Positions 1 to 12,417 of a stretch of DNA of 12,417 nucleotides are shown piece by piece. Each line of letters begins with the position of its first letter. The first letter of the stretch is position 1. Under the pieces are notes generated by a model that ran no database searches, was not told the DNA's origin, and saw only the letters and a list, made by a program, of their open reading frames with translations. This DNA is from Camillea tinctor (lineage: Eukaryota; Ascomycota; Sordariomycetes; Xylariales; Xylariaceae), in assembly GCA_022578605.1 (NCBI GenBank), contig MU394199.1, positions 1 to 12,417 on the forward strand. The letters run 5' to 3'. The translations under genes and the position numbers were made by a program.

Positions 1-198
1 TATTTAAATATAACACTTAAAAAATATATAAAAAACTTTTAAAAAAAATAAGCTAACATGGCTTTTTTTTTAAATTTAAAATATAGTTATTAAATTAATA
101 ATTGCTATTATGCTAAATTAATTTTTAATTAATAATAAAAAAAAAGTAAAATATATAACTAACTTTAAAAAAAGTGCTTAATTTAGCTTTTTTTATTT
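1..198. other. RIP-mutated AT-rich DNA, unassigned
   Basis: This stretch is almost pure A/T and has stops in all frames. I could not match it to any element in the window. It is the flank beyond the 3' (tail) end of the minus-strand SINE copy that begins at 199. A GCTTTTTTT string at 186-194 recurs at 1113-1121 just past the other end of that SINE, a possible but weak remnant of its target-site duplication. Confidence 0.5.
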
Positions 199-412
199 AT
201 AATAATAATAATAATAATATATTTAACGTTTAATATAAAAGCTTATAATTAAACTATTTATTATAATATTTAATTATATTTTAAGCTTATATAAATTATA
301 AAATAGTTAAAGTAAAAAGCTTATATTTTTATATTTACGTGTTAAAAATTATATAAAAAATCTTTTGCGCTAATAGCGCTTTATTATAGTTAGCTTTTTT
401 TAAAGCTTTATT

Positions 413-900
413 AGTAAGGTTAGTTAATAATAATTACTTTATAAAAAGTTACTTTATAAAAAAGTGTTAGCAATAATAAAGTTAGCAATAAGTATGTAAG
501 TTAGCAACAGCTACCTTATTAAAAAAAAGTATTAATAATAGTAAGGTTAATTAATAACAGCTACTTTATTGGTTTTAAAAAGGTGTTAGCAATAAGAAGT
601 ATATAAGTTGGCGATAGCTACCTTATTAAAAAAAAGTATTAGTAATAATAAAGTTAGTTAATAATAGCTACTTTATTAATTTTAAAAAAGTATTAGTAAT
701 AAAAAGTATATAAATTAATAATAATACTTTATAAAAAGCTATTTTATAAAAAATTACTTTATAAAAAAAAAAATATTAGCAATAATAAAGTTATTAATAA
801 CAATTACTTTATTAATAAAGCTATTAATAATAAAAATTTTAATTATTGCTATTTTTATTTAATTAATGCTTTATTTATAGTGCTATTTTAAAATATTAAC
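413..900 (-). repeat. RIP-decayed tandem-repeat body of SINE copy 1
   Basis: Recurrent blocks of the type 'agttagcaa...agctaccttatta' occur about every 120-130 bases (for example around 480-530, 545-625 and 640-690). They are the reverse complement of the GGGTAGCTGTCG / CATCGCTAAC repeats in the GC-rich copy at 6485-6851, with C-to-T and G-to-A changes. The array does not encode a recognisable protein. Confidence 0.75.
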
Positions 901-1030
901 AAAGTAAATATATATGCTAACAATTAGCTAATAATAATATAAGTGCTTAATAAAAAGTTTTGCTAATAATACTTTTATTAACTATAAAATAGCTAATAAA
1001 AAGTATATGTACTTTAAAAAAAAATAATTA

Positions 1031-1112
1031 GTTAAACTATAATAAAATTTAAACTTATATATTAATATTTTACATTAATAAGCTAAGCGCTTAACTATTA
1101 CGCTATATAGCT
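1031..1112 (-). pseudogene. RIP-decayed tRNA-like SINE head
   Basis: This is the reverse-strand counterpart of the tRNA-like head at 5385-5466. The GCGCTTAA core of the D-arm complement is intact at 1086-1093. The central hairpin survives as an A/T-only stem around the same loop. The B-box complement has decayed: GGATTCGAACC in the intact copy corresponds to AAATTTAAACT-like sequence near 1045-1055. Pol III promoter function is therefore very unlikely. The head ends at 1112 with AGCT where the intact copy has GGCC. Confidence 0.8.
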
Positions 1113-1399
1113 GCTTTTTTTTGCTTAACTTTATTTATTTTTTTAAAGTTAAGCGTTATAACTTTAACGCTTTTTAATAAAAAATAAAAAATAAAAAAAA
1201 AGCTTTACTTTTTTACTTATATATAGTAATAGTAGTAGCAATTAACGCTAATATTAACTTTAACTTTAATTTTAATATTTAAAAATAAAATATAGTGCAA
1301 AATAAAAAAAATAAGCTTATAATAATAAAAAACAATAATTTATACTTTAAAAATAAAAAGCTTTTTATTAAGCTATTAATTAAATATGCTTAAAATAAT
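1113..1399 (+). other. Presumed LINE 5' region, nothing recognisable
   Basis: AT-rich and RIP-saturated, with many stops in all frames. It lies between the SINE copy on the left and the first readable ORF1 similarity on the right, so it is most simply LINE 5' UTR or the start of ORF1. I could not recognise a promoter or domain. Confidence 0.35.
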
Positions 1400-2554
1400 T
1401 TATATTTAGCCGATTTTTAAGTAGCATTAATTAATGCTATATTTTTAAATTATAGTAATGTAGTAAATATATAAAAAATAAAAATAAGTTAAGCTTTTTG
1501 CGTTAAAAACAAAAAAGCTAAAAAAAACATTATATGCAAAGCAATTAAAGCTAGTTTTTAGCTAAATAAAGCAATAAATTAAACATTTTATATAGTTTTA
1601 AAAGTGCTTAAAACTTTATAAATAAATTAAAGCTAAAAAGTAATAAACTTTTTTTTATATTAAAAAGTCGTTACATAAATTAATAAAAAATTAAAAATAG
1701 CTTATAAAACTAAACCAGTATTAAAAACTTTTATTTAAAGTTAAATTATTACTTTTAAATAATTAATAAAAGCAGGCTTTTACATTTTTAACTTTAAACT
1801 AACTTTTTTAATAAAAAAAAAAGCTAAAATTTCGCAGTACTAAAAGTGTTTAAACTTTTATAACCTTAAAAACTATAATTGTAACTTTTACTATTATAAC
1901 TATAAAAAAAAAAAACATAATAACTACTAATTTTTTACAAAATGCTTTAATTATAAAAAACTTTATATTTTTTTAATAATAGCCTACTTAACTAAGCTAA
2001 TTAAAAAAAATAAAGCTATTATTTAACATATAAAACAATAATTAGTATAAATTTGACTACTTAGCAAATAACAATACTAAGCTATAATAAAACTAACTAT
2101 TAATAATAATAAAAAAAAGAAGAAAAAAAATATTATTTTTAAAGCTTGCAACACAAGCTTAACCCCAAAAATAGAAATAAGGAAAGCAACTGCCCCTATC
2201 CTTGCTTTAAAAACAGCAAAACTAAAGCCAGCACTAACGTTAAACCTAAAACTTGCTCTTATAAAGAAACTAAAGAAAAAACATAACAATAACATAGCAA
2301 ACAACTCTTACTTAAAAAAAAAAAGCCTAAAAAATATAAAAAACCTAACCAAACCGAACTTTATAAATAAAAAGCAATAAAACTAAAACTTTAAAAAGTT
2401 TAAAACCTTACTTAGCTAAGTTGCATTTATAAAAAACGAAAAAATCTTTCTTTACAGCTAATATAAACAAGTTAAAAAAACTAATACTTTAAAAAAAGAG
2501 TACGAAAAAAACGAACTTAAAATAGCAACTAGCAGCATTTTAGTGCGCTTTTAA
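1400..2554 (+). pseudogene. LINE ORF1 (gag-like, zinc-knuckle) relic
   Basis: One frame stays readable through 1766-2552 with scattered TAA/TAG. At 1766-1795 it reads IKAGFYIFNF, like the conserved stretch before the zinc knuckles in fungal LINE ORF1. At 1835 it reads QY*KCLNFYN, where TAC at 1838 is probably a former TGC Cys codon and TGT at 1847 is an intact Cys codon. At 1940 it reads KCFNYKK, which resembles the last knuckle, followed by a basic helix-like stretch. From 2081 to 2380 the frame has no stops and gives a Lys/Ala/Thr/Leu-rich tail in which many Leu codons are TTA (probably former Ser TCA). ORF1 proteins of this class bind the element RNA. The start is not identifiable and the end near 2552 is a TAA that may or may not be original. 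Confidence 0.7.
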
Positions 2555-2900
2555 GCTTACCTCGCCTTAATATAACACTTATAAATATAGCTTTTTTTTA
2601 AAATAATAAAATTGTTATAATAATTATTAAGCTTTAGCTTAAATAATTATAAATAGTAATAATAAAGCTATAAAAATTTAATAGCTTAATTAAACGCTAA
2701 AAAAAGTAGTTATACTTTTTATAAATAAACGTTTAAAAAGGATTATAAACTTATAATATAGCATTAAAAGCAGTAAATAATGCTTAAATAAACATAATAC
2801 TTATTTAAAAACTTTAGGTTAATACTTAAAAAAATAAAAAAATAATTAAAACCTACTTAAAATATAATACTTTTTTTTTTATTAAAAACTAAAAAAAGCA
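2555..2900 (+). other. ORF1-ORF2 junction or ORF2 N-terminus, unreadable
   Basis: RIP-saturated AT-rich sequence between the end of the ORF1 frame and the first endonuclease similarity. By position it should hold the ORF2 start and the first endonuclease strands, but stops are frequent in all three plus-strand frames and I recognise no motif. Confidence 0.35.
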
Positions 2901-5384
2901 AAAGCCTAAAATCTTTATATACATATATAAAAAACCACACTTTTTAACATTTTAATTAAAACCGTTTATAACATTAAATATATGCATAATGAAAATAAAT
3001 AATATTATAGTTTATAATATATATATAAACGAAAAGTTCCCGCAAAACTTTTTTTTAAAACTAAAAAATTAAAAACTTAAACTAAAAAAAATATATAAAA
3101 GTAACTTTAATGTAATTTACTAATTATAGCAACTTAAACATAAAAAAAAACATAATAAACTTAAATAATAAGTTGCAAATTAAGCCATAAACTATAAACT
3201 TAAAATATTAAACTTAAGTAATTTTACTTATTAAATAAAAAATATTATAAACTTAATACTATTTAATATTTTTAATAATACTGCATAAATAAATTAAAAA
3301 ATATATATTAAGTTAAATTATTACACACTAAACTATTAAGTATTAATAAGCATTTTAAAAACTATATTATTAAAATACTTTAACTTTATAAAAAACGCTT
3401 TTTTAAAATATTTCTAATTATTAATACTATATTAAATAATACTTTTTTTTTTTTTAAATACAGTAAAAAAAACTAAAAAACTAATAAACTTTTTTTTTAA
3501 TACCTTTAACAAAGTTAAAAAAGCATTAAGCAAGTTTAAATATAATAAAAAGCGCAACGCTATTTAATAAAATAAAAAATGCGTAAAGTATATTAAAGCT
3601 TTATATAAAGCAATAAAAAAATATTTACTTAAAAAAGTAATATAAAAACTAATAGTTACTTAATATAAAGCTTTTAAAAAAGTTAAAAAAAAATATTAAA
3701 AAAAAAAAATTAATAAAATAAATAACGATAAAAATATTTTTAAAATTGTTAGTTAATATAAGCTTAAAAACAATTTTTATTTTTTTTTTTTTATATATAA
3801 TAGCTTAATAATTATAAACATTATAAGTAAAATATAACTACTTTAAAACAAAATACTTATATTAAAAGCAAACAAAAAAAACATTAATAACCTATAACAA
3901 CTACTTATTTTTACAAATATAAACCTTTTTATGCTAAAAAAAAAAAACTATAAAGAAATAAAGACATTATTTTATAAAACTAGCACGTTTTGCTAAATAA
4001 AGCAGAATTAACATATATTTACATAATTAACATTTTTTTAAAAAAAGATAAGCTTATAGCTTTTTTTTTATAAAAAGTATAATTAATTATAAACTTAACA
4101 GTAAAAATACTTTATAAAACATGCTTAAAATATAAGTATTACTTAATACACTTTTAAACAATTAAAGTAATAATGTTATTAAAAATAAAAAATAAAAATT
4201 TTATTATAATTAAGTTTTAAAAGTTAATATTATTTTTATTTTATTTAAAAAAAAATTTAAAACAGTTAATAGCTAAATGTATAGCAAACTTTACAATTAA
4301 AAAAAATATTATTTATTATTAATAATTTAAAGCTTTTTTTAAAAAAGTAACTGTTAACTTTATAACATACGTTATATATAATGTAAAAAAAGTGCTTAAT
4401 AAGAAAAAAAAAATATTATTTTTAACAATAAACGTATTTAAAGCATTTAACGCAATTTTTAAAAAAAGACTTATTTTGCGCTTATAAAAGTAAAAATAGC
4501 TAAATAATTTAATTAAATAAGTTAAATTTTACATAATAAATAAAAAAGTAATAATTTACATAAAAAATGTTATAATTACATTTACTTTACTTTTTTGCAA
4601 AATATTATAAAAGTTTTTAATTTTACTTATATTATTTATATTATATATTAAATTAATATTTAAAAAAAGCGCATTTAATATAAAGTTTAATTACGTAAAC
4701 GACATAGCTATTTTTAAAGTAAAAAAATTAATTTAAAAAACTATAAAATAATTAAAAAAAAACATTAAAGCTATTTTAAAATAAAAAAAGCATAATGCTT
4801 TTTTTTTTAACCTTGCTAAATGTAAACTTAAATATTTTTATAAAAAACACGACATAAAAGAAAAATCAATATAAATTAAGAACTTTATTATATATTTTTT
4901 AAAAAAAGCAATTAAGTAGCTTAAAATGTACTTTAACTTTAAGCTGCGTTTTAAAAATTATGTCGCAATTTAAAAAGCTAAAGCACTTTAAGTGGCCAAT
5001 TATATTAAGCATTTTAATAAAATAACTAAAAGCGCTTTATTAAATAAAATAATTAAAGCAATTAAAGTATGCATAATATTAATAGCAATATATATAGTAA
5101 AAATATAGTAGCTTAAATATTATTAATAAAATATTTTTAAAAGCAAAGTGGTATGTATTAATTATAAGGCTTAATTAGCTATTTTTAATAAACTTTTTAA
5201 AATAGCAGCTAAAATAATACTATTAATATAAAAAATAACTAATATATTAATACTTTATAAAAAATTAGGCATTTTACTTTTAAAAGTACTTTTTAAGTAA
5301 ATATATAATAAATACTTAATTTAATTTAAAGTATTAAACTTTTAATACTTTTTAGTAATAAAAGCAAACTTTAAAAGCAATTTT
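2901..5384 (+). pseudogene. LINE ORF2 relic: endonuclease plus reverse transcriptase
   Basis: Endonuclease: frame 1 reads INNIIVYNIY near 2992-3025 (like the VNVYN strand), SNFNV at 3100-3114 in place of GDFN, and NLILFNIFNNTA near 3254-3289 in place of the DLTFFN-type end motif; the metal-binding Asp codon is AAC. Reverse transcriptase: frame 0 has finger motifs (about 4170-4280), motif A INVFKAFNA at 4428-4454 with both Asp codons now AAC, motif C YVNDIAIF at 4692-4715 in place of YVDD, then KKHNAFFFNLAKCKLKYF (4785-4838) and the thumb VAIxKAKALKVANYIKHF (4962-5015), typical of fungal Tad1-like LINEs. The shift between the two domains indicates indels. The catalytic losses make it inactive. 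The SINE insertion at 5385 cuts the frame; a C-terminal RNase H, present in many Tad1 LINEs, was not recognised. Confidence 0.87.
5371..5383 (+). repeat. Target-site duplication of the SINE, left copy
   Basis: TTAAAAGCAATTT directly precedes the tRNA-like head and recurs at 7081-7093 directly after the CAT tail. One more T on the left of each copy (5370, 7080) makes 14 matching bases. It is part of the LINE ORF2 coding frame. Duplications of this size are typical of target-primed reverse transcription. Confidence 0.87.
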
Positions 5385-5466
5385 GGCCACATGGCGCAGT
5401 GGTTAAGCGCCTGGCAGACATTAGTGTAGAATACTAATGTAATGGGTTCGAATCCCATTGTGGTCC
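5385..5466 (+). tRNA. tRNA-like head of the SINE (aberrant anticodon arm)
   Basis: The acceptor stem is seven pairs (5385-5391 with 5459-5465, one G-T). The D-arm is GCGC/GCGC (5394-5397, 5407-5410) and the T-arm ATGGG/CCCAT with loop TTCGAAT (5442-5458). Between D- and T-arms there are 31 nt instead of about 23. They hold a 7-nt linker (CTGGCAG) and a perfect 8-bp stem (5418-5425 with 5433-5440) around the loop GTAGAAT. Read as an anticodon loop, that loop has U33, AGA at 34-36 and A37, formally Ser, but the geometry is not that of a normal tRNA-Ser, which has a long variable arm. Its position at the TSD boundary, and a RIPped copy in the same place in the other SINE, show that it is the SINE head. 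A tRNA caller may nevertheless report it. Confidence 0.7.
5392..5455 (+). promoter_or_regulatory. Internal Pol III promoter: A box and B box
   Basis: A box TGGCGCAGTGG is at 5392-5402 and B box GGTTCGAATCC at 5445-5455. Both match the eukaryotic tRNA-type Pol III consensus, with 42 bases between them. Both remain unmutated in this copy while flanking LINE DNA is RIP-saturated. They would start transcription near the first base of the SINE. Confidence 0.8.
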
Positions 5467-5469
5467 AAC
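5462..5469 (+). repeat. 8-bp target-site duplication of the hAT element, left copy
   Basis: GGTCCAAC here and at 6248-6255 flanks the hAT-type element perfectly. The duplicated bases include the 3' strand of the tRNA-like acceptor stem, so the head keeps a complete acceptor stem despite the insertion. Confidence 0.93.
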
Positions 5470-5487
5470 CAGGGTTGTGATAAAAAA

Positions 5488-5665
5488 CTTTAGTTTTTAG
5501 TTTTTTTTTAGTTACTAACTAATTTAGTTAGTTTTAACTACAAGACCCACTAACTACAGTAGTTTTAGTCAGCCTATTAACTAACTCATGTAGTTTTTAG
5601 TCAAAGTACTAACTAACTCATGTAGTTTTAATCAAGGCTTTAACTAACTACAAACTACATGAGTT
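5488..5665 (+). repeat. hAT element left subterminal repeat block
   Basis: This block of TAGTTTTTAG, AGTTACTAACTAA and ACTCATGTAGTTTTAGTCAAG motifs is repeated in the same orientation in the right arm at about 6031-6200. The two blocks share motif order. Motif arrays like this are typical binding sites for hAT transposases; that role is inferred. Confidence 0.65.
5494..5509 (+). terminator. Pol III-type T runs brought in by the hAT element
   Basis: T5 at 5494-5498 and T9 at 5501-5509 lie about 30-45 bases after the tRNA-like acceptor end. A T9 run is a strong Pol III terminator. Any transcript from the A/B boxes should stop here, leaving a ~110-125 nt RNA and excluding the SINE body. Confidence 0.6.
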
Positions 5666-5669
5666 AATC

Positions 5670-5766
5670 AAGTTAGTAACTACAAAAAAACTAAAAACTA
5701 CAAAAATAGCCCCATTTTTCTTAAAAATAATAGTTGAATACTATATTTAATATAATAAATTAAATT
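5670..5766 (+). repeat. Internal inverted repeat of the hAT element, left arm
   Basis: The segment pairs with 5961-6057. The outer ~60 bases (5670-5729 against 5998-6057) are nearly perfect, with about two mismatches; the inner part, running into the AT-rich core, is roughly 85% matched. RNA or single-stranded DNA could fold into a long hairpin. It may mark a second palindromic element nested within the hAT element, although I see no clear TSD around it. Confidence 0.75.
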
Positions 5767-5960
5767 TAAATTTTATATAACCTATTTTATAAAAAGTATT
5801 ATTTTATATTAAATATATAGTAAGTTATTTAATTTTTTAATTTAAGGTATATTAAAAATTATAATTATACATAAAAAACATTTAAATTTATTAACGTTAT
5901 AACTTTTTTAATTTAATTAATAAAATTATATTTTTTATAAAATAATTTATATAAAGCTTT

Positions 5961-6057
5961 AATTTAATTTATTAAATTAAATATAGTACTAAATTATTGT
6001 TTTTAAGAAAAATGAGGCTATTTTTGTAGTTTTTAGTTTTTTTGTAGTTACTAACTT
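5961..6057 (-). repeat. Internal inverted repeat of the hAT element, right arm
   Basis: Reverse-complement partner of 5670-5766. It contains AAGAAAAATGAGGCTATTTT where the left arm has the complement with GGGG in place of GAGG. The 5767-5960 spacer between the arms is nearly pure A/T with no coding potential. Confidence 0.75.
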
Positions 6058-6247
6058 AAACTAGTGTAGTTAGTCTTAGTCAGGCTACTAACTAACTACA
6101 GTAGTTTTAGTCAAGCTATTAACTAACTTATGTAGTTTTTAGTTATTATACTAACTAACTCATGTAGTTTTAGTCAAGCTATTAACTAACTCTAATTAGT
6201 GGGGCTAGTTAATTTAGTAACTAATTAGTAACTAAATCACAACCCTG

Positions 6248-6255
6248 GGTCCAAC
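6248..6255 (+). repeat. 8-bp target-site duplication of the hAT element, right copy
   Basis: GGTCCAAC, identical to 5462-5469. The SINE resumes here and runs on into TAACCATCCC. In the other SINE copy a single, RIP-altered version of this site is present at 1031-1038. Confidence 0.93.
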
Positions 6256-6265
6256 TAACCATCCC

Positions 6266-6290
6266 TTTTTCCAAGGCACACACACTTTTT
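6266..6290 (+). terminator. Two T5 runs just after the SINE head
   Basis: TTTTT at 6266-6270 and 6286-6290. Before the hAT insertion the first lay about 18 bases beyond the acceptor end, the usual place for a tRNA gene terminator. T5 is a weak to moderate Pol III terminator in fungi, so full-length SINE RNA would need read-through. Confidence 0.45.
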
Positions 6291-6367
6291 ATTGGCTGTT
6301 TATAGCCAATAAAAGCATTATCGGCGAAACTTTTCGCCGAGCACCCACATCATTGCCGGCTAATTGC
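6291..6367 (+). other. Three consecutive perfect hairpins in the SINE
   Basis: Stem 1 is ATTGGCT/AGCCAAT (6291-6297, 6304-6310). Stem 2 is CGGCGAA/TTCGCCG (6322-6328, 6333-6339). Stem 3 is a 7-bp stem of TGCCGGC with GCCGGCA that begins at about 6354 and closes across a 5-nt loop just after 6360. The RIPped copy keeps the same block in reverse at about 915-1000, with stems weakened but recognisable. The role is unknown: structured RNA domain, or a remnant of another small RNA gene. Confidence 0.75.
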
Positions 6368-6484
6368 CGGCATACACACTTCCCCCGCCAACATCCCAGA
6401 GTAGCACTGCAAATGGACCAAAAAGCATTAGCCAAATGGAAATGCCAGCGACCGAAACATCCACTGCCGATAGCCCCACTAACA

Positions 6485-6851
6485 GGGTAACTGTCGCCAA
6501 CAACCCCACCATCGCTAACACCCCCCTCCCCACAAGGTAGCCTCCTATAGGGTAGCTTCCTACAGGGTGCTGTTGCCAACCCACACACCCCCCTATCGCC
6601 AACACCTCTCTATCCAATAGGGTAGCTGTCGTCGACCCACACACCCATCGCTAACCCCATCATCGCTGACACCCCCCCACAGGGTAGCCCCCTATAAGGT
6701 GGCTGTCACCGACCAACCCCACCATCGCCAACACCTCCCTCCAATAGGGTAGCTGTCGTCGACCCACACACCCATCGCCAACCCCATCATCGCTGACACC
6801 CCCCTACAGGGTAGCCCTCTATAGGGTGGCTCTTTACAGGGTGCTGTCACC
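6485..6851 (+). repeat. GC-rich tandem repeat body of the SINE (~128 bp period)
   Basis: Two long units, 6595-6723 and 6724-6851, start with ATCGCCAACACCT and contain CCAATAGGGTAGCTGTCGTC (6614 and 6741, 127 apart), CATCATCGCTGACACC and an AGGGTGGCTGTCACCGAC-type end. Degenerate partial units precede them from about 6485. Internal short repeats of CAGGGTAGC / TATAGGGTAGC suggest the unit itself grew from a shorter motif. Reading frames through it are low-complexity and differ between units, so it is not coding. Confidence 0.85.
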
Positions 6852-6867
6852 GACTAACCAACCCCCG

Positions 6868-7080
6868 GCAAGGCCTTGGAGAAGGCTAGCCAACGGTAAG
6901 GCGCTAGCTACTAGCGCGGAGGATTTCCTATGTAAATTTTCAACACGCTGGTACGGGGGCATAAGCCCCTTACTCCAGCCGTCCCATAGTCTATACAGGC
7001 TCAGGGTGTAACTAGATATTATAGTAAATAGTTTAGCTATAAGCTCCCGCACTGGACGTTAAATATATCATCATCATCAT
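6868..7080 (+). repeat. SINE 3' region with CAT tail, shared with segment 8141-8410
   Basis: The segment starts GCAAGGCCTTGGAGAAGGC and contains a perfect GCGCTAG/CTAGCGC hairpin (6901-6917). It continues with the block TTTTCAACACG (6938-6948), a second hairpin (CTGG/CCAG and GGGGC/GCCCC, about 6948-6978), CCGTCCCATAGTCTATACAG, and the end motif CGTTAAATATAT followed by (CAT)n (7068-7080). Aligned pieces recur in RIPped form at 8141-8410 (same strand) and 199-410 (opposite strand). By analogy with LINE/SINE pairs it is probably the part recognised by the LINE reverse transcriptase. Confidence 0.85.
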
Positions 7081-7093
7081 TTAAAAGCAATTT
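7081..7093 (+). repeat. Target-site duplication of the SINE, right copy
   Basis: TTAAAAGCAATTT, identical to 5371-5383 and adjoining the last CAT of the tail. The LINE sequence should resume after it. Confidence 0.87.
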
Positions 7094-8140
7094 AAAAAAA
7101 ATAAAACTATAAATAATAAATATATTAATTTTTTTATGCTTATGCTTAAACTTCTTTAACAAACGTTAGCTTAAAGCTTTTTTTTTTATTTTGCAAAAAA
7201 AGCAACAAAAATTATAAAACATAAATATTAGTTTAAATACTTTTTTTTATTTAATTTAGTTTTTTACTTAAATAAATTTAAAATTTTAAATATTTACGTT
7301 AATTAAAAGTTTATAATATATTAAAGTAATAAAAAGTTATATTTTTTTTATAGACTTTTTAGTTAAGTAAAAGTTTTTAATGTAAAAGTAATTATTACGC
7401 AAAAAGTTGTAAAATAAGCAAAAATAAAGTAATACAATATTATCTTTACTTTTACTAGCTTTTATTTATGCTTAAATAATATAGCGGTAATTTAAGGGCT
7501 TTTTAGCTATTTTTTTAATAATTTTTAAGCTAATTTTATTGCTTTTATAAAAATAATCGACTATATTTGTTTTCTTGTTTATATTATATAATAGTTCCTT
7601 AAACATAAAAATATTCTTAAAAACAAGAAAGTAAACTAATAAGCTAAAAAAAGCGCTAGCTCTAATTGTTTTAATTGCTTTTTCCTTAACTTTTTTAAAC
7701 TTTTTACTTTAACTTATACTTAACGTATTAATAAGCTTAAAAAACATAACATTTTTATTAAGTAGTAAATACAAAATATTTCTTGCTTATATTAAAGGTA
7801 AAAACTGCTTGTAGTTTTTACTTTTAAAAAGTTTATATTTAGTTGTTAAACTTTATACTAGCTTTTTGCTAAACGCACGGGTTATGAGGACTTCGCGAAC
7901 TATTACCGACGCTTTAACTATTTTAAAACGGTTAATTGCTATGTATATAAGTGCAATTAAAAATAAAATTTTAGTTATATTATAAAATGTTAGTACACTT
8001 AACATACGATACGGAAATTTAAGCTTTGCTTAAAACGTAAATCTTGTTATTTAATTAGCTATAAAGGCTACTTTAATTTTATAACCTTCTTTATATAAGC
8101 CAGCTTATATAAAAAACGAGAACTATAATGTAACTAATAA
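7094..8140 (+). other. Presumed LINE 3' segment, RIP-mutated, no domain recognised
   Basis: By the insertion logic this continues the LINE interrupted at 5384, so it should carry the ORF2 C-terminus and 3' UTR. Plus-strand frames contain many stops and I could not recognise an RNase H domain. The minus strand has a stop-free stretch at 7475-7708 (78 codons), extendable with a few stops to about 7340-7990. Its sequence is plausible as protein (FKKVKEKAIKTIRASAFFSL) but matches no family I know. It could be a relic of another gene or chance. GC-richer islands such as 7875-7912 are less RIPped. Confidence 0.4.
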
Positions 8141-8410
8141 GCAAAGCCTACAAAAGCTAGCCATAATAAAGTAATTAACGTTGCGAAAAAACACAGCTTA
8201 AATAAATAAAAAATATAACTACAGTCCTTAAAAAAAGAAAGTAAGAAGATTTCTTTTGTATATTTTCAACACGCAAGTACGAGAAGTAACCTTTTTACTT
8301 TTGCCGTCCTATAGTTTATATAAGCTTAAAGTGTAACTAAATACTACCTAATAAATAGTTCAGCTCTAGCTCCCGCTTTAAACGTTAAATATATCATTAT
8401 TATTATTATC
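8141..8410 (+). repeat. RIPped relative of the SINE 3' end, probable LINE 3' terminus
   Basis: It aligns with 6868-7080: GCAAAGCCTAC...AAGCTAGCC, AGATTTCTTTTGTATATTTT, CAACACG, TTTGCCGTCCTATAGT, CTAGCTCCCGC, and AACGTTAAATATATCATTATTATTATT as a decayed CAT tail (8391-8410). It carries about 50 extra bases near 8175-8235 that neither SINE copy has, so it belongs to a different element or subfamily. No tRNA head or tandem repeat precedes it. The simplest reading is the 3' end of the interrupted LINE; a 5'-truncated SINE variant is the alternative. Confidence 0.7.
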
Positions 8411-9690
8411 AATACATATATAAATATTGCTACTAAATTAAACCTTTTTATAACAAACTTTTTTTATATTTAAAAAAGTGCTATAAAGCTTAAAACATTA
8501 ATTTAAACAAAATTAAGTTTAATATAAAAGTAAAAAATTTTAAATAAACTTATAACATAATAAAAAAAGTTCTTTAAAAAATTAAAAAGGCCTTTTTATA
8601 AAAAGCTTAAAAAAATCTTTACTTTTTAGCTATACGTACTTGCGCATAAAAGTTTAAGTAGCGCTAAATTCTAAAAACTTCAAAATCTATTTAAATTTTA
8701 ATATAAAACAAACTTTAATTAAAAAATCTTTTTTAAATACTTTTAATTACATTATAAAAAAACGCTAAAAAAAAGTTAAAAATATTAAAAAAAAAAAAGT
8801 TCATTATTTTAAATAAGTAATTTTTACACTATATATGCTTAAAATAAAAAAAAATAGTAAAAAAACTTTAATAAAACTCGTTAAATAAAAATAAGTTTTA
8901 AAAAATAACTTTAAGCTTAACGTACTTTTAAAAAACGATTTTTTAAAGCTTTATAAAGTAAATATTTTTTATTTAACAAGCGTTATAACATTTAATATTT
9001 TAAATAAATAGCAAGTATTATTTAAAGTTAAGTTTAAATTTTAACTATATAACCAAAAAGTAACTTTAACGCAAAAAATAACATTATTTTTTAAATAAAT
9101 AGCTATAATACTAACTTATTATATATTTTTACTAAATAATAAAAGCTTTATATTTAAAGCTTACTATAAATTAACCGTTAGCATAATTATTAGCTTAATT
9201 ACCTTATTATTTATAATCGTTAAAAATAATATTAATAAAAATTAAATTATTAATAAAAGTATTAAAATAAAATTTATTTAAAAATATATAAACAGTAATT
9301 ATTTTGCTACATTATGAACTAAATGCATAAAAGCCTTAACTTTAACTGCAAAATTAGCTTATATTTTTATTATTATAGCAGCTATTAAAATGTTTTTTAT
9401 AAAAAAAATAAATATACTTAATATAACAAACTAACTAAAAATAATAAAGTTTAATGCATAGTTTTTTATTACACTTATAATTATAGCTTTTACTACGAAC
9501 TTTATTTTAAACAATATTAAAATAAACATTATTTACGCTATAAAAAAACTATGTTTTTAAATAAAAACGCTATTAATAAATATTGTTTATAATATAATAT
9601 AAAGTATTAAAAAAAAGCAAAATACTAATAATAAGCTAAAAGTTTTTAAGCATATATTTATACTTAAAATTAAAAAATTAAATAATATTT
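8411..9690 (+). pseudogene. Gypsy gag / pol N-terminal relic
   Basis: RIP-saturated. From about 8990 a frame becomes increasingly readable (for example NNKSFIFKAYYKLTVSIIIS and TKCIKALTLTAKLAYIFIIIA), and it is continuous with the frame that enters pol at 9702. I do not recognise a capsid zinc knuckle or a protease DSG/DTG motif, so the domain assignment rests on position upstream of the reverse transcriptase. The first ~500 bases after 8410 show nothing identifiable and may include leader or LTR remnants. Confidence 0.45.
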
Positions 9691-9699
9691 TAAAAATTA

Positions 9700-10640
9700 A
9701 AACCGATTTAAAACACTACGTATATAATAAAAACTTTAAGTTTGCATAAAAAATTATAAGCGTAATTAATAAATTTCTTAACGTTTAAAAAAATAAAAAA
9801 CTAATTAATTTTTTTAAAAACTAATAAATAAAAATCTTTTTAATTAAAGGTTAATAAAATAAAAAAGTTAATAATTAACTATATTTTTTTAGCTAAAAAA
9901 ATTATAAAAAATTAAACAAATAATTTAACTTGCTATATAGCTAAAAACGGATAAAATAAGTAAATAAACTAAGCTTTTTTGCTTACTTTATTTTTATAAC
10001 TTAAAAAATAGTTAATAAATAATTATATAAACATTTAGTAATTAATTTAAAAGTGCTTAATTTTTTAACAATTTTTAATAATTACCCACTTTTTTTATAA
10101 AAAAAAATTATTAATGCGCTTAAAAAAAAGAAATATGTAACTATAATAAATGTTATTAAATTTTTTTACTAATTTTTTATATACTTAAAATATTAAAATA
10201 AATTAATAATAATTAGCTTAAAAGAATTAAAAAAATATAAAGTTGCTATAATAAAATTTTAAAATTTATTAATTTATGCTTAAAAGTTTATAAATAAACT
10301 TTTACTTAACTATAAACATTATTATAAAGCTTTTATTAACGATATTATTATTTTTTTTAATATTAAAAAAAAATACTTTAAACACTTACATATTATACTT
10401 AATTTTTTTTAAAAAAAAAAAGTTTTTATATTACTTAAAAAAACTTTTTTTATATATTTATTTATTACTTTATTAAGCTTTAAAGTAAATGCTTTTAAAC
10501 TTTTTACAACGGAAAATAAGCTTAAAGCATTTTGTAAGCTAGTTTTTTTTAAATAATTAAAAAAGTTAAAATAATATTTAAGTGCTTTTAAATTTTTTAA
10601 AAGCTTTATTTCTTATTACGCATAATTAGCGAAACTATTA
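9700..10640 (+). pseudogene. Gypsy reverse transcriptase relic
   Basis: Frame 0 reads TDLKHYVYNKNFKFA (9702-9746) and IISVINKFLNV. A region of KYVTIINVIKFFYxFF near 10134-10180 matches motif A (VIDATSFFYQF in the family; Asp is now Asn). Motif C is AFINDIIIFF at 10329-10358, with AAC (10338) where the first Asp of the xxDD pair should be. Then come HLHIILNFF and TLLSFKVNAFKLFTTENKLKAF (split here only by a family-typical loop), the fungal gypsy connection to RNase H. The loss of Asp in motifs A and C makes it inactive. Confidence 0.85.
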
Positions 10641-11290
10641 TAAAAAAAAAATAGCTTTTTTTATAGCTAAACATAAAAAAAAAAAGCTTTTTATAAACAA
10701 TAAAAAAAAAAAAATAGCTTATATTAAGTTTATATATTATAAGCTTACTTTAATAAAACTTAAATTGTTTAAAAGTTTTTAAAATATAATATGTTGAAAT
10801 TTAATAATTTATTACTATAATTTTAATAAAACCTTATTTATGCAAATAAATAGTTTAATTTATAAAAAATTTGAAGTTATGCTTTTTTACGTTAAAAATA
10901 ACTATAAATAAATATTTAAAACTTTTATTTTAAAACTAGTAGTTTAACTAATAATGTTTTTAAATAAATATTTTTTATAAGTTAAAATTAAATATAAATT
11001 ATTAAAATTAAAAGTAATTTACGTTGCTTAAGCTGCTAAAAAACTACGTATTACAATTAAAGCAAATTATTTACTAATAATAATTTTTATTAACTATTTT
11101 GTAACTAAAAATATTTTAAATTAAACATTACTTAATACTATATTAACGGATAAATTTAATATAAAGCTAATAAACGCTTTTATTTACTTTTTTCGTTATA
11201 AGTTTTAAGTTTATTACTTTTTTAAACGTTTTAACTATGTTTTTAACGCTTTAAATAGATTATATACAATTAACGACAAATACAATATAA
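10641..11290 (+). pseudogene. Gypsy RNase H relic
   Basis: Frame 1 gives LFMQINSLIYKKFEVMLFYV (10834-10893), corresponding to the LFLQIDSS...GVML strand in which the catalytic Asp is now AAT (10849). It continues MFLNKYF...KYKLLKLKVIYVAxAAKKLR (10952-11048), then LTDKFNIKLINAFIYFFRY (11143-11199), and ends FNALNRLYTINDK (11242-11280), the counterpart of the PDALSRL signature that closes gypsy RNase H. The frame is offset from the reverse transcriptase frame, so an indel fell in the poly-A stretch before 10714. Confidence 0.83.
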
Positions 11291-11559
11291 AAAATGCATT
11301 AAAAAAAACTAATAAAAAGCCTATTTTTAATTAAGTGTATATAGTTAAAGTTAATAAAGTTATTATAAATAAAAATATAATAACGAAATTTATTAAAAAA
11401 TATATAAACAATTTAAAATATTAAAATATAGTTATTATATTAAAAAAAAGTTTTAATAAAAACGTTAAATTTTTTTTAAAGCTTAGTTACTTTTTTAATA
11501 TTTATAAAAAACTTTTATATAATATTAATTAATAAAGAAATAATCGTTTTTATATACTT

Positions 11560-12417
11560 AAATTTATAATTAAAAAAGTTTTAGCATTAACTTATAATAA
11601 TAAATATTATTTTAATATAAATAAAATAATAAAAAAATTAAAAAAGTACGCTATTTAAAAAAAAATAAAGCTAATTAAGCAATATGTTAAACACTATTTA
11701 GCTTATAAGCTTTATTATATAAGCTAAAATAAGCTATTTAAAAATTACTAACTAATTAAACTAAGTAATTTTAAACTAATAAAAACAATTGCGATTAATT
11801 TTATAATTAAACTTTTTTTAATTTTTTTTATAAGCACTTTATAGCAATTATTAAAACTAAAAAAATATAAATTATACTTTAATGCTTTAATAACAAATAT
11901 TTATATTACATTAAAGTAATTTTTGCTTATACTTAAAAATGTACGCTATATAGTAAAAAATTAAATAAAAGCATTAATATAATAATTATTACTATTTAAC
12001 TAAAAAGTGCTTAATAGAATTATTTTGGATTAAAACTGCAAATTTACTTTAAAATTTTAAAAAGAAATGTAAAAGGCACTTAAAACATAACTTTTAATAA
12101 TAATAGTTTATTACTTTTAAGTAAATGGACTATTTAAAAAAAAAAATTAAACGGTTAAAATAGCTATTAAGTATTATTACTTTAAAAATTTAAAAAGCAA
12201 TTAAGTAAAACTATTACTTAAATTATAGTAAAATTTAAACGTAGCGTATTTAAAGGCAATTTAGTTATTTTTTTATAAATAACTTTTTAATTATCGTTTG
12301 TTAAAACTTAATAACGTTTTAATTAAAAATAATATAAAATTTTAACTATTTAAAAAAATACAATATTTAAAAAAACATTTATATAAAAATGTAAAATTAG
12401 TAATAAACTTTACTATT
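11560..12417 (+). pseudogene. Gypsy integrase relic, cut by window end
   Basis: The zinc-binding region reads ALTYNNKYYFNINKIIKKL (11584-11640), where His codons of the HHCC motif have become Tyr (CAT/CAC to TAT). The catalytic core begins TIAINFIIKL (11785-11814), Asp to Asn at 11797. A second catalytic Asp is retained as GAT at 12028 in the SDRD-like motif, followed by Asn for the second Asp of that motif. KEMxKAL (12061-12081) and NGLFKKKNxTVKIAIKYYYF (12124-12183) match the GQSERxNQTVEIAIRYY region, with the catalytic Glu now Lys (12136). Core end NLNVAYLKAI is near 12235. The domain is dead by two of three catalytic residues. Confidence 0.87.

What the first reader, a model, noticed from the sequence alone, without database searches (positions are those of the whole stretch)
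5385..7080. A ~910 bp tRNA-headed SINE-like family defined by two full-length copies
The unit at 5385-7080 starts exactly at a tRNA-like G1, ends in (CAT)n and has a 13-14 bp TSD. A collinear, RIP-decayed copy on the other strand (199-1112) confirms both ends and the length (914 versus 910 bp without the hAT element). Few fungal SINEs are known, and they are mostly much shorter. This one has a GC-rich tandem-repeat body and no ORF. I do not recognise it as a described family.
Basis: partly seen in the sequence, partly recalled or inferred. Interest (0 to 1): 0.88.

Follow-up and report, generated by a model that had tools for sequence, protein, structure and literature searches.

The report
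Fungal SINE sharing a LINE's tail
A fungal genome (likely that of Camillea tinctor) holds at least 39 copies of a tRNA-headed repeat, mostly 700 to 920 bases long, that ends in nearly the same structured tail as a 6.3-kb LINE found in many copies around it, so it was likely copied by that LINE's enzyme; it is a new family of a kind already known from a few fungi.

Summary
The 910-bp unit (5385-7080 without a 778-bp hAT-type insert) is a dispersed family: 39 head-plus-tail copies in 197 kb examined, with triplet tails and their own target-site duplications (net match of 13 or more bp in 23 of 39, against 25 of 1378 mismatched flank pairs). Eleven other copies of the surrounding sequence show the site empty.

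Both SINE copies of the window sit in one LINE (window 1-8406; a complete copy elsewhere is 6.27 kb with a 14-bp TSD), and its last ~162 bp match the SINE's 3' end, with two stem-loops kept through two-sided changes. A second, ~415-bp SINE family has a related head and tail. This is the stringent SINE/LINE arrangement published for Mg-SINE/MGL, SINE2-1_BG/Tad1-24_BG and AfuSINE2-1a/I-1_AF. New family, known kind.

Less ordinary: 18 of 39 SINE copies look un-RIPed, five of them inside RIPed LINE copies, while no intact copy of that LINE was found; the SINE may have outlived its driver. Pol III transcription and use of this LINE's enzyme are inferred.

The parts
1..198 (+). RIPed LINE, part of its 5' region (roughly the first 500 bp of the LINE lie beyond the contig's left end)
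   Evidence: Window 1-198 (or 1-193/194) matches the stretch directly upstream of the 1116-equivalent in LINE copies, e.g. on C45, C46, C42, C20, C21, C90 at 86-89% (output partly cut); LINE 5' end about 687 bp upstream of the 1116-equivalent
199..1112 (-). RIP-decayed SINE-A copy inserted in the LINE
   Evidence: End-to-end alignment with the 910-bp unit; LINE continues on both sides, and 12 other LINE places run across the joined flanks with a gap of about one TSD
1113..5384 (+). RIPed LINE, middle part (ORF1 region, endonuclease-like and reverse-transcriptase regions)
   Evidence: Many copies, long matches mostly 80-88%; reading frames full of stops
2710..3033 (+). endonuclease-like N-terminal region of the LINE protein (weak matches)
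   Evidence: Profile positions 8-122 match here and at the same LINE place (window 2703-3033) in six other hits on C64 (two), C45, C21, C27, C42; each alone is weak, E 0.16-20
4377..5078 (+). reverse-transcriptase core of the LINE (decayed YADD-like motif, read by eye as YVND)
   Evidence: Profile of 16 LINE proteins, domain E 4.5e-5; reversed control none to E 10, three block-shuffled controls best E 0.53; weak hits in other copies fall at the same LINE place; Pfam scans of stop-read-through frames found no RT
5371..5383 (.). SINE target-site duplication, 5' copy (TTAAAAGCAATTT)
   Evidence: empty site in 11 other LINE copies
5385..5466 (+). tRNA-like head of SINE-A
   Evidence: Rfam RF00005 39.9 bits, E 1.8e-6; fold z -3.9 for 5385-5468
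5392..5402 (+). A-box-like motif TGGCGCAGTGG
   Evidence: match to a recalled consensus TRGYNNARNNG in 18 of 18 un-RIPed copies
5445..5455 (+). B-box-like motif GGTTCGAATCC
   Evidence: exact match to a recalled consensus GGTTCGANTCC in 12 of 18 un-RIPed and 1 of 18 RIPed copies
5462..5469 (.). 8-bp target-site duplication of the hAT-type insert, 5' copy (GGTCCAAC)
5470..6247 (.). hAT-type non-autonomous DNA element, 778 bp, 12-bp terminal inverted repeat CAGGGTTGTGAT, longest reading 45 codons
6248..6255 (.). 8-bp target-site duplication of the hAT-type insert, 3' copy
6256..6914 (+). SINE-A body, GC-rich with tandem units of 65/127 bp
6915..7080 (+). SINE-A 3' end homologous to the LINE 3' end
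   Evidence: unit 749-910 against 8245-8406, 75.6% in 164 columns; alignment A1
6947..6979 (+). stem-loop 1 of the shared tail (columns 33-71 of A1)
   Evidence: RNAalifold and pair counts on A1
6983..7006 (+). stem-loop 2 of the shared tail (columns 75-98 of A1)
7069..7080 (+). (CAT)4 tail
7081..7093 (.). SINE target-site duplication, 3' copy
7094..8406 (+). RIPed LINE, 3' part
   Evidence: copies; continuous with 5384 in copies without the SINE
8245..8406 (+). LINE 3' end homologous to the SINE tail, followed by (ATT)n

Best explanation
The unit is a tRNA-headed SINE family, SINE-A, that carries nearly the same 3' end as the RIP-decayed LINE in which it lies, so it was likely copied and inserted by the enzyme of that LINE or a close relative. 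Shown: tRNA-like head, tandem body, a shared 3' end of ~162 bp with two stem-loops that keep pairing through two-sided changes, triplet tails on both elements, TSDs of the same size (14 bp on two LINE copies, mostly 13-16 bp on the SINE), dispersed copies, empty sites. Inferred: the RNA is made by RNA polymerase III from the A/B boxes; the LINE's ORF2 protein binds the shared stem-loop, nicks AT-rich DNA and reverse-transcribes the RNA from its 3' end (target-primed reverse transcription). Also inferred: the SINE went on inserting after RIP had destroyed the LINE copies it sits in, driven by a LINE copy now lost or unassembled.
For: Copies: 42 head and 45 tail matches in the own genome, lower bounds, the 42 head matches beginning at query base 1-7; 39 head-plus-tail copies in 197 kb, net TSD of 13 or more in 23 of 39 against 25 of 1378 mismatched flanks. 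Empty site of the window insertion in 11 other LINE copies at 84-91%. LINE: long repeated matches mostly 80-88%; RT profile E 4.5e-5 with controls; 17 of 18 profile hits in held stretches fall at two fixed LINE places, endonuclease-like at window 2703-3033 and RT at 4234-5147, in the profile's order and spacing; many 5'-truncated copies with one 3' end; complete copy C74:6140-12408 with TSD AAAATTTACAAAAT. A LINE inserted in a SINE-B copy at C147 has a ~14-bp TSD, TTTTTCCTA[A/G]CATT. Shared tail: A1; 42 cells with two-sided changes against 16.6 in shuffles, 0 of 500 as high; mismatches of six LINE tails to one SINE tail are mostly C-to-T/G-to-A in the LINE (21-36 of 36-50; reverse 0-5; transversions 9-12). 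SINE-B: related head and tail, TSD-like repeats.
Against: No intact copy of this LINE was found (RVT_1 search: 5 matches, none recognised as this LINE; tail-side search: 51 matches, 40 of 84 candidates scored). Pfam did not recognise the decayed LINE in ten read-through frames; its RT identity rests on a home-made profile and motif reading, and most single profile hits are weak. Two of the five covariation measures are not much above the shuffles: further pair types 23 against 22.3 (231 of 500 as high) and pairs with two-sided change 10 against 7.1 (17 of 500). Runs of five or more T lie just behind the head (near unit position 96 in 17 of 18, near 116 in 18 of 18 un-RIPed copies) and could stop Pol III before the tail is made. 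No parental tRNA gene was identified. Six of 39 copies gave no TSD and several TSDs are AT-rich or run into the triplet tail, hence weak. Five of 16 SINE-A tails (A2 subtype) end differently from this LINE.
Confidence: 0.88

Rival explanations
1. SINE-A is a SINE, but another LINE of the same lineage, not the one in the window, mobilised it; the likeness of the tails is then one of descent rather than of use.
For: Five of 16 SINE-A tails in A1 carry a different terminal segment (A2); no intact copy of the window LINE was found to drive the recent copies; SINE-B has a third variant of the tail.
Against: Eleven of 16 SINE-A tails share the LINE's terminal segment apart from mostly RIP-type changes. 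No other LINE with such a tail was recognised: of 13 matches of the A2 end, 8 lie within about 1 kb of a same-strand SINE head seen; the other 5 were not followed. The un-RIPed LINE at C78 ends in (CTT)n and gives no significant tail match.
Confidence: 0.15
2. The RNA is made by Pol II, by readthrough or from a promoter outside, and the tRNA-like head is a relic without promoter function.
For: Runs of five or more T near positions 96 and 116 in nearly all un-RIPed copies; the anticodon arm is a long hairpin unlike a normal tRNA.
Against: A-box motif in 18 of 18 and exact B-box motif in 12 of 18 un-RIPed copies; the 42 head matches of the genome search begin at base 1-7 of the head, as expected for an internal promoter.
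Confidence: 0.15
3. The copies are segmental duplicates or a subtelomeric repeat rather than transposed elements.
For: Many copies lie near contig ends.
Against: Most copies have their own flanks and TSD; empty sites exist; LINE copies carry the SINE at different positions.
Confidence: 0.01

Closest known systems
Mg-SINE with its LINE MGL/MGR583 (Magnaporthe)
   Same: tRNA-derived fungal SINE whose 3' end resembles that of a ~6-kb LINE; a chimeric insertion of the pair is flanked by 14-bp repeats (passages of PMC2104539; table row in PMC3747384)
   Different: Mg-SINE is 472 bp (PMC5063351); un-RIPed SINE-A copies are 737-919 bp with a GC-rich tandem body. Sequences were not compared.
SINE2-1_BG with Tad1-24_BG (Blumeria); EGH24
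   Same: fungal tRNA-SINE paired with a Tad1 LINE (table row, PMC3747384); EGH24 is listed as 900 bp (PMC5063351)
   Different: Blumeria hordei is said to lack RIP (abstract of PMC10648671 in a search listing), whereas 18 of 39 copies here look RIPed. Sequences were not compared.
AfuSINE2-1a with I-1_AF (Aspergillus fumigatus)
   Same: SINE 3' terminus similar to the 3' UTR of a Tad-clade LINE; another AfuSINE2 copy lies next to the RT of a LINE copy (passages of PMC5063351)
   Different: there the similar stretch is at SINE positions 210-335, so that element is much shorter
Stringent-type LINE tails with stem-loops (zebrafish ZfL2-1/ZfL2-2)
   Same: a stem-loop in the 3' tail RNA is the recognition site of ORF2 (abstract of PMC4176376)
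   Different: recognition was measured there; here only the sequence pattern is seen

Membership tests
tRNA-derived SINE | tRNA-related 5' head | tested here: met
   Rfam RF00005 E 1.8e-6
tRNA-derived SINE | internal Pol III A and B boxes | tested here: met
   A motif 18 of 18, exact B motif 12 of 18 un-RIPed copies; consensus patterns recalled
tRNA-derived SINE | transcribed by Pol III | not testable with these tools
   no RNA data; T runs near 96 and 116 speak against easy readthrough
tRNA-derived SINE | dispersed copies with different target-site duplications | tested here: met
   23 of 39 with net TSD of 13 or more against 25 of 1378 mismatched pairs; empty sites
tRNA-derived SINE | no protein-coding capacity | tested here: met
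   longest stop-to-stop reading 106 codons
tRNA-derived SINE | length 100-600 bp (range given in PMC5063351) | tested here: not met
   737-919 bp in un-RIPed copies; the same paper lists fungal SINEs of 700-900 bp, so I do not take this as defining
stringent SINE/LINE pair | SINE 3' end homologous to the 3' end of a LINE of the same genome | tested here: met
   75.6% in 164 columns before allowing for RIP; A1
stringent SINE/LINE pair | conserved 3' stem-loop | tested here: met
   94.6% of cells paired; cells with two-sided changes 42 against 16.6 shuffled, but further pair types 23 against 22.3; relatedness and RIP inflate such counts
stringent SINE/LINE pair | LINE protein binds the tail and moves the SINE | not testable with these tools
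   needs experiment
LINE (APE-type non-LTR retrotransposon) | reverse-transcriptase domain | tested here: met
   profile E 4.5e-5 window, 5.1e-5 C147 copy, controls, same place in other copies; not seen by Pfam
LINE (APE-type non-LTR retrotransposon) | endonuclease domain upstream of RT | tested here: inconclusive
   seven weak matches to the profile's N-terminal end (E 0.16-20), all at window 2703-3033 equivalents, at about the profile's distance from the RT match; the copies are related, so they are not independent
LINE (APE-type non-LTR retrotransposon) | 5'-truncated copies with a common 3' end and TSDs | tested here: met
   TSDs read on two copies, C74 and C147
Tad1 clade | RT phylogeny within Tad1 | not tested
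   copies too decayed; no reference Tad1 set used
Mg-SINE, SINE2-1_BG or AfuSINE2 family | sequence homology with those elements | not tested
   no comparison with their sequences was made

The most novel reading that the evidence does not exclude
A SINE that outlived its driver: RIP has ruined every copy of the partner LINE seen here, while the SINE has a generation of un-RIPed copies (18 of 39 examined), five of them inside dead LINE copies. Together with the A1/A2 tails and a second SINE family with a third tail variant, this would be a tail-swapping SINE lineage that passes from one LINE to the next as RIP removes its hosts.
Probability: 0.25. Interest if true: 0.65.

Novelty: new member of a known kind. 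Interest (0 to 1): 0.42.

Why it matters
It adds two SINE families and a LINE to the short list of fungal stringent SINE/LINE pairs, in Xylariales, where the two genome papers seen give only masked-repeat counts for SINEs (passages of PMC8954856 and PMC12369201). Because the genome shows RIP, copies carry a time stamp: nested RIPed and un-RIPed insertions order the events (LINE, RIP, SINE, hAT). That makes it possible to ask how a non-autonomous element survives a defence that kills its helper, and whether length or timing spares it.

Tried and rejected
Segmental duplication: rejected by TSDs and empty sites. The LINE starting at window 1113: rejected, because sequence upstream of the 1116-equivalent is conserved for up to ~690 bp in other copies and window 1-198 belongs to it. 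Pfam on stop-read-through frames: five of the window LINE and five of other copies, no RT. The un-RIPed LINE at C78 as partner: it ends in (CTT)n and gives no significant tail match. RVT_1 in the own genome: 5 matches; I read two as gypsy-like, one as telomerase-like, one as the C78 LINE and one as a decayed RT without a match to the window LINE (labels by eye). Parent tRNA: 59 places listed, from 63 scored of 1531 candidates; I fetched 40 of the 59, one as a longer stretch, and compared 39; the best two proved to be SINE-B heads, the best other one matched 50 of 82 positions. Papers: Camillea tinctor was not among the ten titles shown (a search that accepted either term); of ten shown, three mention Camillea, none opened.

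Selections made: alignment A1 holds 28 tails picked as less decayed ones (16 SINE-A, 6 SINE-B, 6 LINE); other LINE tails, for instance on C21, C45 and C64, and the RIPed SINE tails were left out. The 39 copies keep the nearest head per tail; head matches had to begin within 10 bases of G1; heads without a tail and tails without a head were dropped. Two of the 39 besides the window copy exceed 1.4 kb and probably hold inserts.

Full report
What was checked. The unit at 5385-7080 is as described: G1 at 5385, (CAT)4 at 7069-7080, TSD TTAAAAGCAATTT at 5371-5383 and 7081-7093, a 778-bp hAT-type insert at 5470-6247 with 8-bp TSD GGTCCAAC, 910 bp without it, 53% GC in an 18% GC window. The reverse-strand segment aligns over its whole length. 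The head is a tRNA by Rfam (39.9 bits, E 1.8e-6); the default ARAGORN scan did not call it, ARAGORN with introns allowed did, with an isotype I do not trust because the anticodon arm folds as a long hairpin.

Host. The window is contig C149 of a 44.7-Mb, 154-contig genome. A P450-like ORF of contig C42 is 100% identical over 92% of the query to a protein named for Camillea tinctor, on a contig of 357,555 bases, the length of C42. Camillea is in Xylariales, Sordariomycetes.

The family. The 3' 151 bp has 45 matches with 40 of 78 candidates scored, the 85-bp head 42 with 40 of 77 scored; the whole stretch gave 220 pieces, copies of the hAT-type insert included. In 197,225 bases held, blastn found 59 heads and 64 tails, giving 39 head-plus-tail copies. 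TSDs with a net length of 13 or more occur in 23 of 39, against 25 of 1378 pairs of flanks taken from copies on different contigs; at 9 or more it is 28 of 39 against 199 of 1378; six copies gave none. By G+C the 39 fall into 18 un-RIPed (0.46-0.53), 3 intermediate (0.37-0.40) and 18 RIPed (0.22-0.32); the RIP indices differ in the same way. Un-RIPed copies are 737-919 bp and 82-97% identical pairwise, mean 91%, so even this generation is not very recent or was seeded by several sources.

The host element. Sequence on both sides of the SINE is itself repeated, long matches mostly at 80-88%. Its translation carries a decayed RT: a profile of 16 LINE proteins, found with the un-RIPed C78 LINE as query, matches the window at 4377-5078 (domain E 4.5e-5) and the lightly RIPed C147 copy (5.1e-5); reversed frames gave nothing up to E 10 and three block-shuffled sets at best 0.53. 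Of the 18 profile hits in the merged held stretches, most of them weak alone, 17 fall at two LINE places: profile 8-122 at window 2703-3033 and profile 512-817 at 4234-5147. Pfam scans of ten read-through frames found no RT. Copies share one 3' end and many are 5'-truncated. In 9 of 11 copies compared, the alignments upstream of the 1116-equivalent mostly stop at about 620-700 bp; two copies stop earlier in most pairs, and a few pairs run on further. Copy C74:6140-12408 is complete, 6.27 kb with tail, flanked by AAAATTTACAAAAT. At C147 a 5'-truncated LINE sits in a SINE-B copy with a ~14-bp TSD, TTTTTCCTA[A/G]CATT. Window 1-198 is also LINE, so the RIPed SINE at 199-1112 is a second insertion in the same LINE copy; 12 other places run across its joined flanks.

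Empty sites. With the flanks of the window insertion joined, 11 other LINE copies on C20, C21, C42, C45, C64, C74 and C90 run through the junction at 84-91%; two further low matches (73-74%) look like chance. Five un-RIPed SINE-A copies (C21:8724, C42:71061, C45:27415, C64:232902, window) lie inside RIPed LINE copies with TSDs of 14 or 15 bp. They therefore came after the RIP of those LINE copies, unless RIP spared the SINE alone.

The shared tail. SINE unit 749-910 and LINE 8245-8406 are 75.6% identical. For six LINE tails against one un-RIPed SINE tail, 21-36 of the 36-50 mismatches are C-to-T or G-to-A in the LINE, 0-5 the reverse, 9-12 transversions: most of the difference is RIP-like. The alignment of 28 chosen tails gives two stem-loops; 10 of 16 pairs have two-sided changes, 94.6% of cells are paired and 42 cells have two-sided changes against 16.6 in shuffles and 1-20 in slid versions; the number of further pair types is no higher than in shuffles (23 against 22.3). 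RIP itself can turn G-C into A-T on both sides, but U-A to A-U and G-C to C-G cannot come from RIP alone. Within SINE-A, 11 of 16 tails end like this LINE (A1) and 5 of 16 differently (A2). A search with the A2 end gave 13 matches; 8 lie by a SINE head, 5 were not followed, so an A2-type LINE is not excluded.

SINE-B. The tRNA search turned up a second family of ~415 bp, first at C3:72998 and C44:30378, with a related head (81% over 81 bp) and tail. A search found it at seven loci (C3, C22, C44, C101, C142, C140, and C147 in pieces). At the six read by eye (all but C140) repeats of 10-14 bp flank the element.

Mechanism. From published work on stringent pairs (abstract of PMC4176376; passages of PMC5135761): the LINE ORF2 protein recognises a 3' stem-loop shared with the SINE; Pol III transcription of SINEs is textbook knowledge and stated in PMC5063351. 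Shown here are only the sequence traces. Against simple Pol III transcription stand runs of five or more T near positions 96 (17 of 18) and 116 (18 of 18) of un-RIPed copies.

Comparison. Mg-SINE/MGL (passages of PMC2104539; table row in PMC3747384), SINE2-1_BG/Tad1-24_BG and AfuSINE2-1a/I-1_AF (PMC5063351, passages and introduction) are the same arrangement, and PMC5135761 names Tad1 in fungi among LINE/SINE pairs with a shared 3' stem-loop (passage). Tail sharing in fungi is thus already in print. New here, as far as the searches go, are the families, the host, the long tandem body and the RIP time stamps. SINE counts exist for two genomes that the papers or their listing place near Xylariales (Arthrinium rasikravindrae, Neoarthrinium moseri) as masked repeats of short mean length, without families (passages).

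Verdict. The open point is how the un-RIPed SINE copies arose when no intact copy of the LINE was found.

Noticed in passing
5470-6247: hAT-type non-autonomous element with a partly palindromic interior; its ends recur at 92-100% on C20, C27, C42, C45, C46, C11 and C67.
   Followed up: partly
L031/L034 (C78, about 3.6-7.3 kb): Un-RIPed LINE (L031 59% GC, 691-codon RT reading; endonuclease part in another frame) ending in (CTT)n behind TTTAAATATA, a different family from the window LINE.
   Followed up: partly
L086-L090, L080: SINE-B, a ~415-bp second SINE family with related head and tail and flanking repeats, some copies in DNA of 42-50% GC rather than in AT-rich blocks.
   Followed up: partly
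8407-12417: AT-rich DNA without copies in the held stretches apart from one weak match; the translation near 10300-10560 reads by eye like a decayed Ty3/gypsy RT, not tested.
   Followed up: no
C11, C20, C21, C27, C46, C64, C67, C74, C90: AT-rich blocks, mostly 6-30% GC per 500 bp, bordering DNA of 40-50% GC in several of the held stretches; many near contig ends.
   Followed up: no
6266-6270 and 6286-6290: Runs of five T directly behind the tRNA head (unit ~96 and ~116), kept in nearly all un-RIPed copies; possibly a retained tRNA-gene terminator.
   Followed up: no
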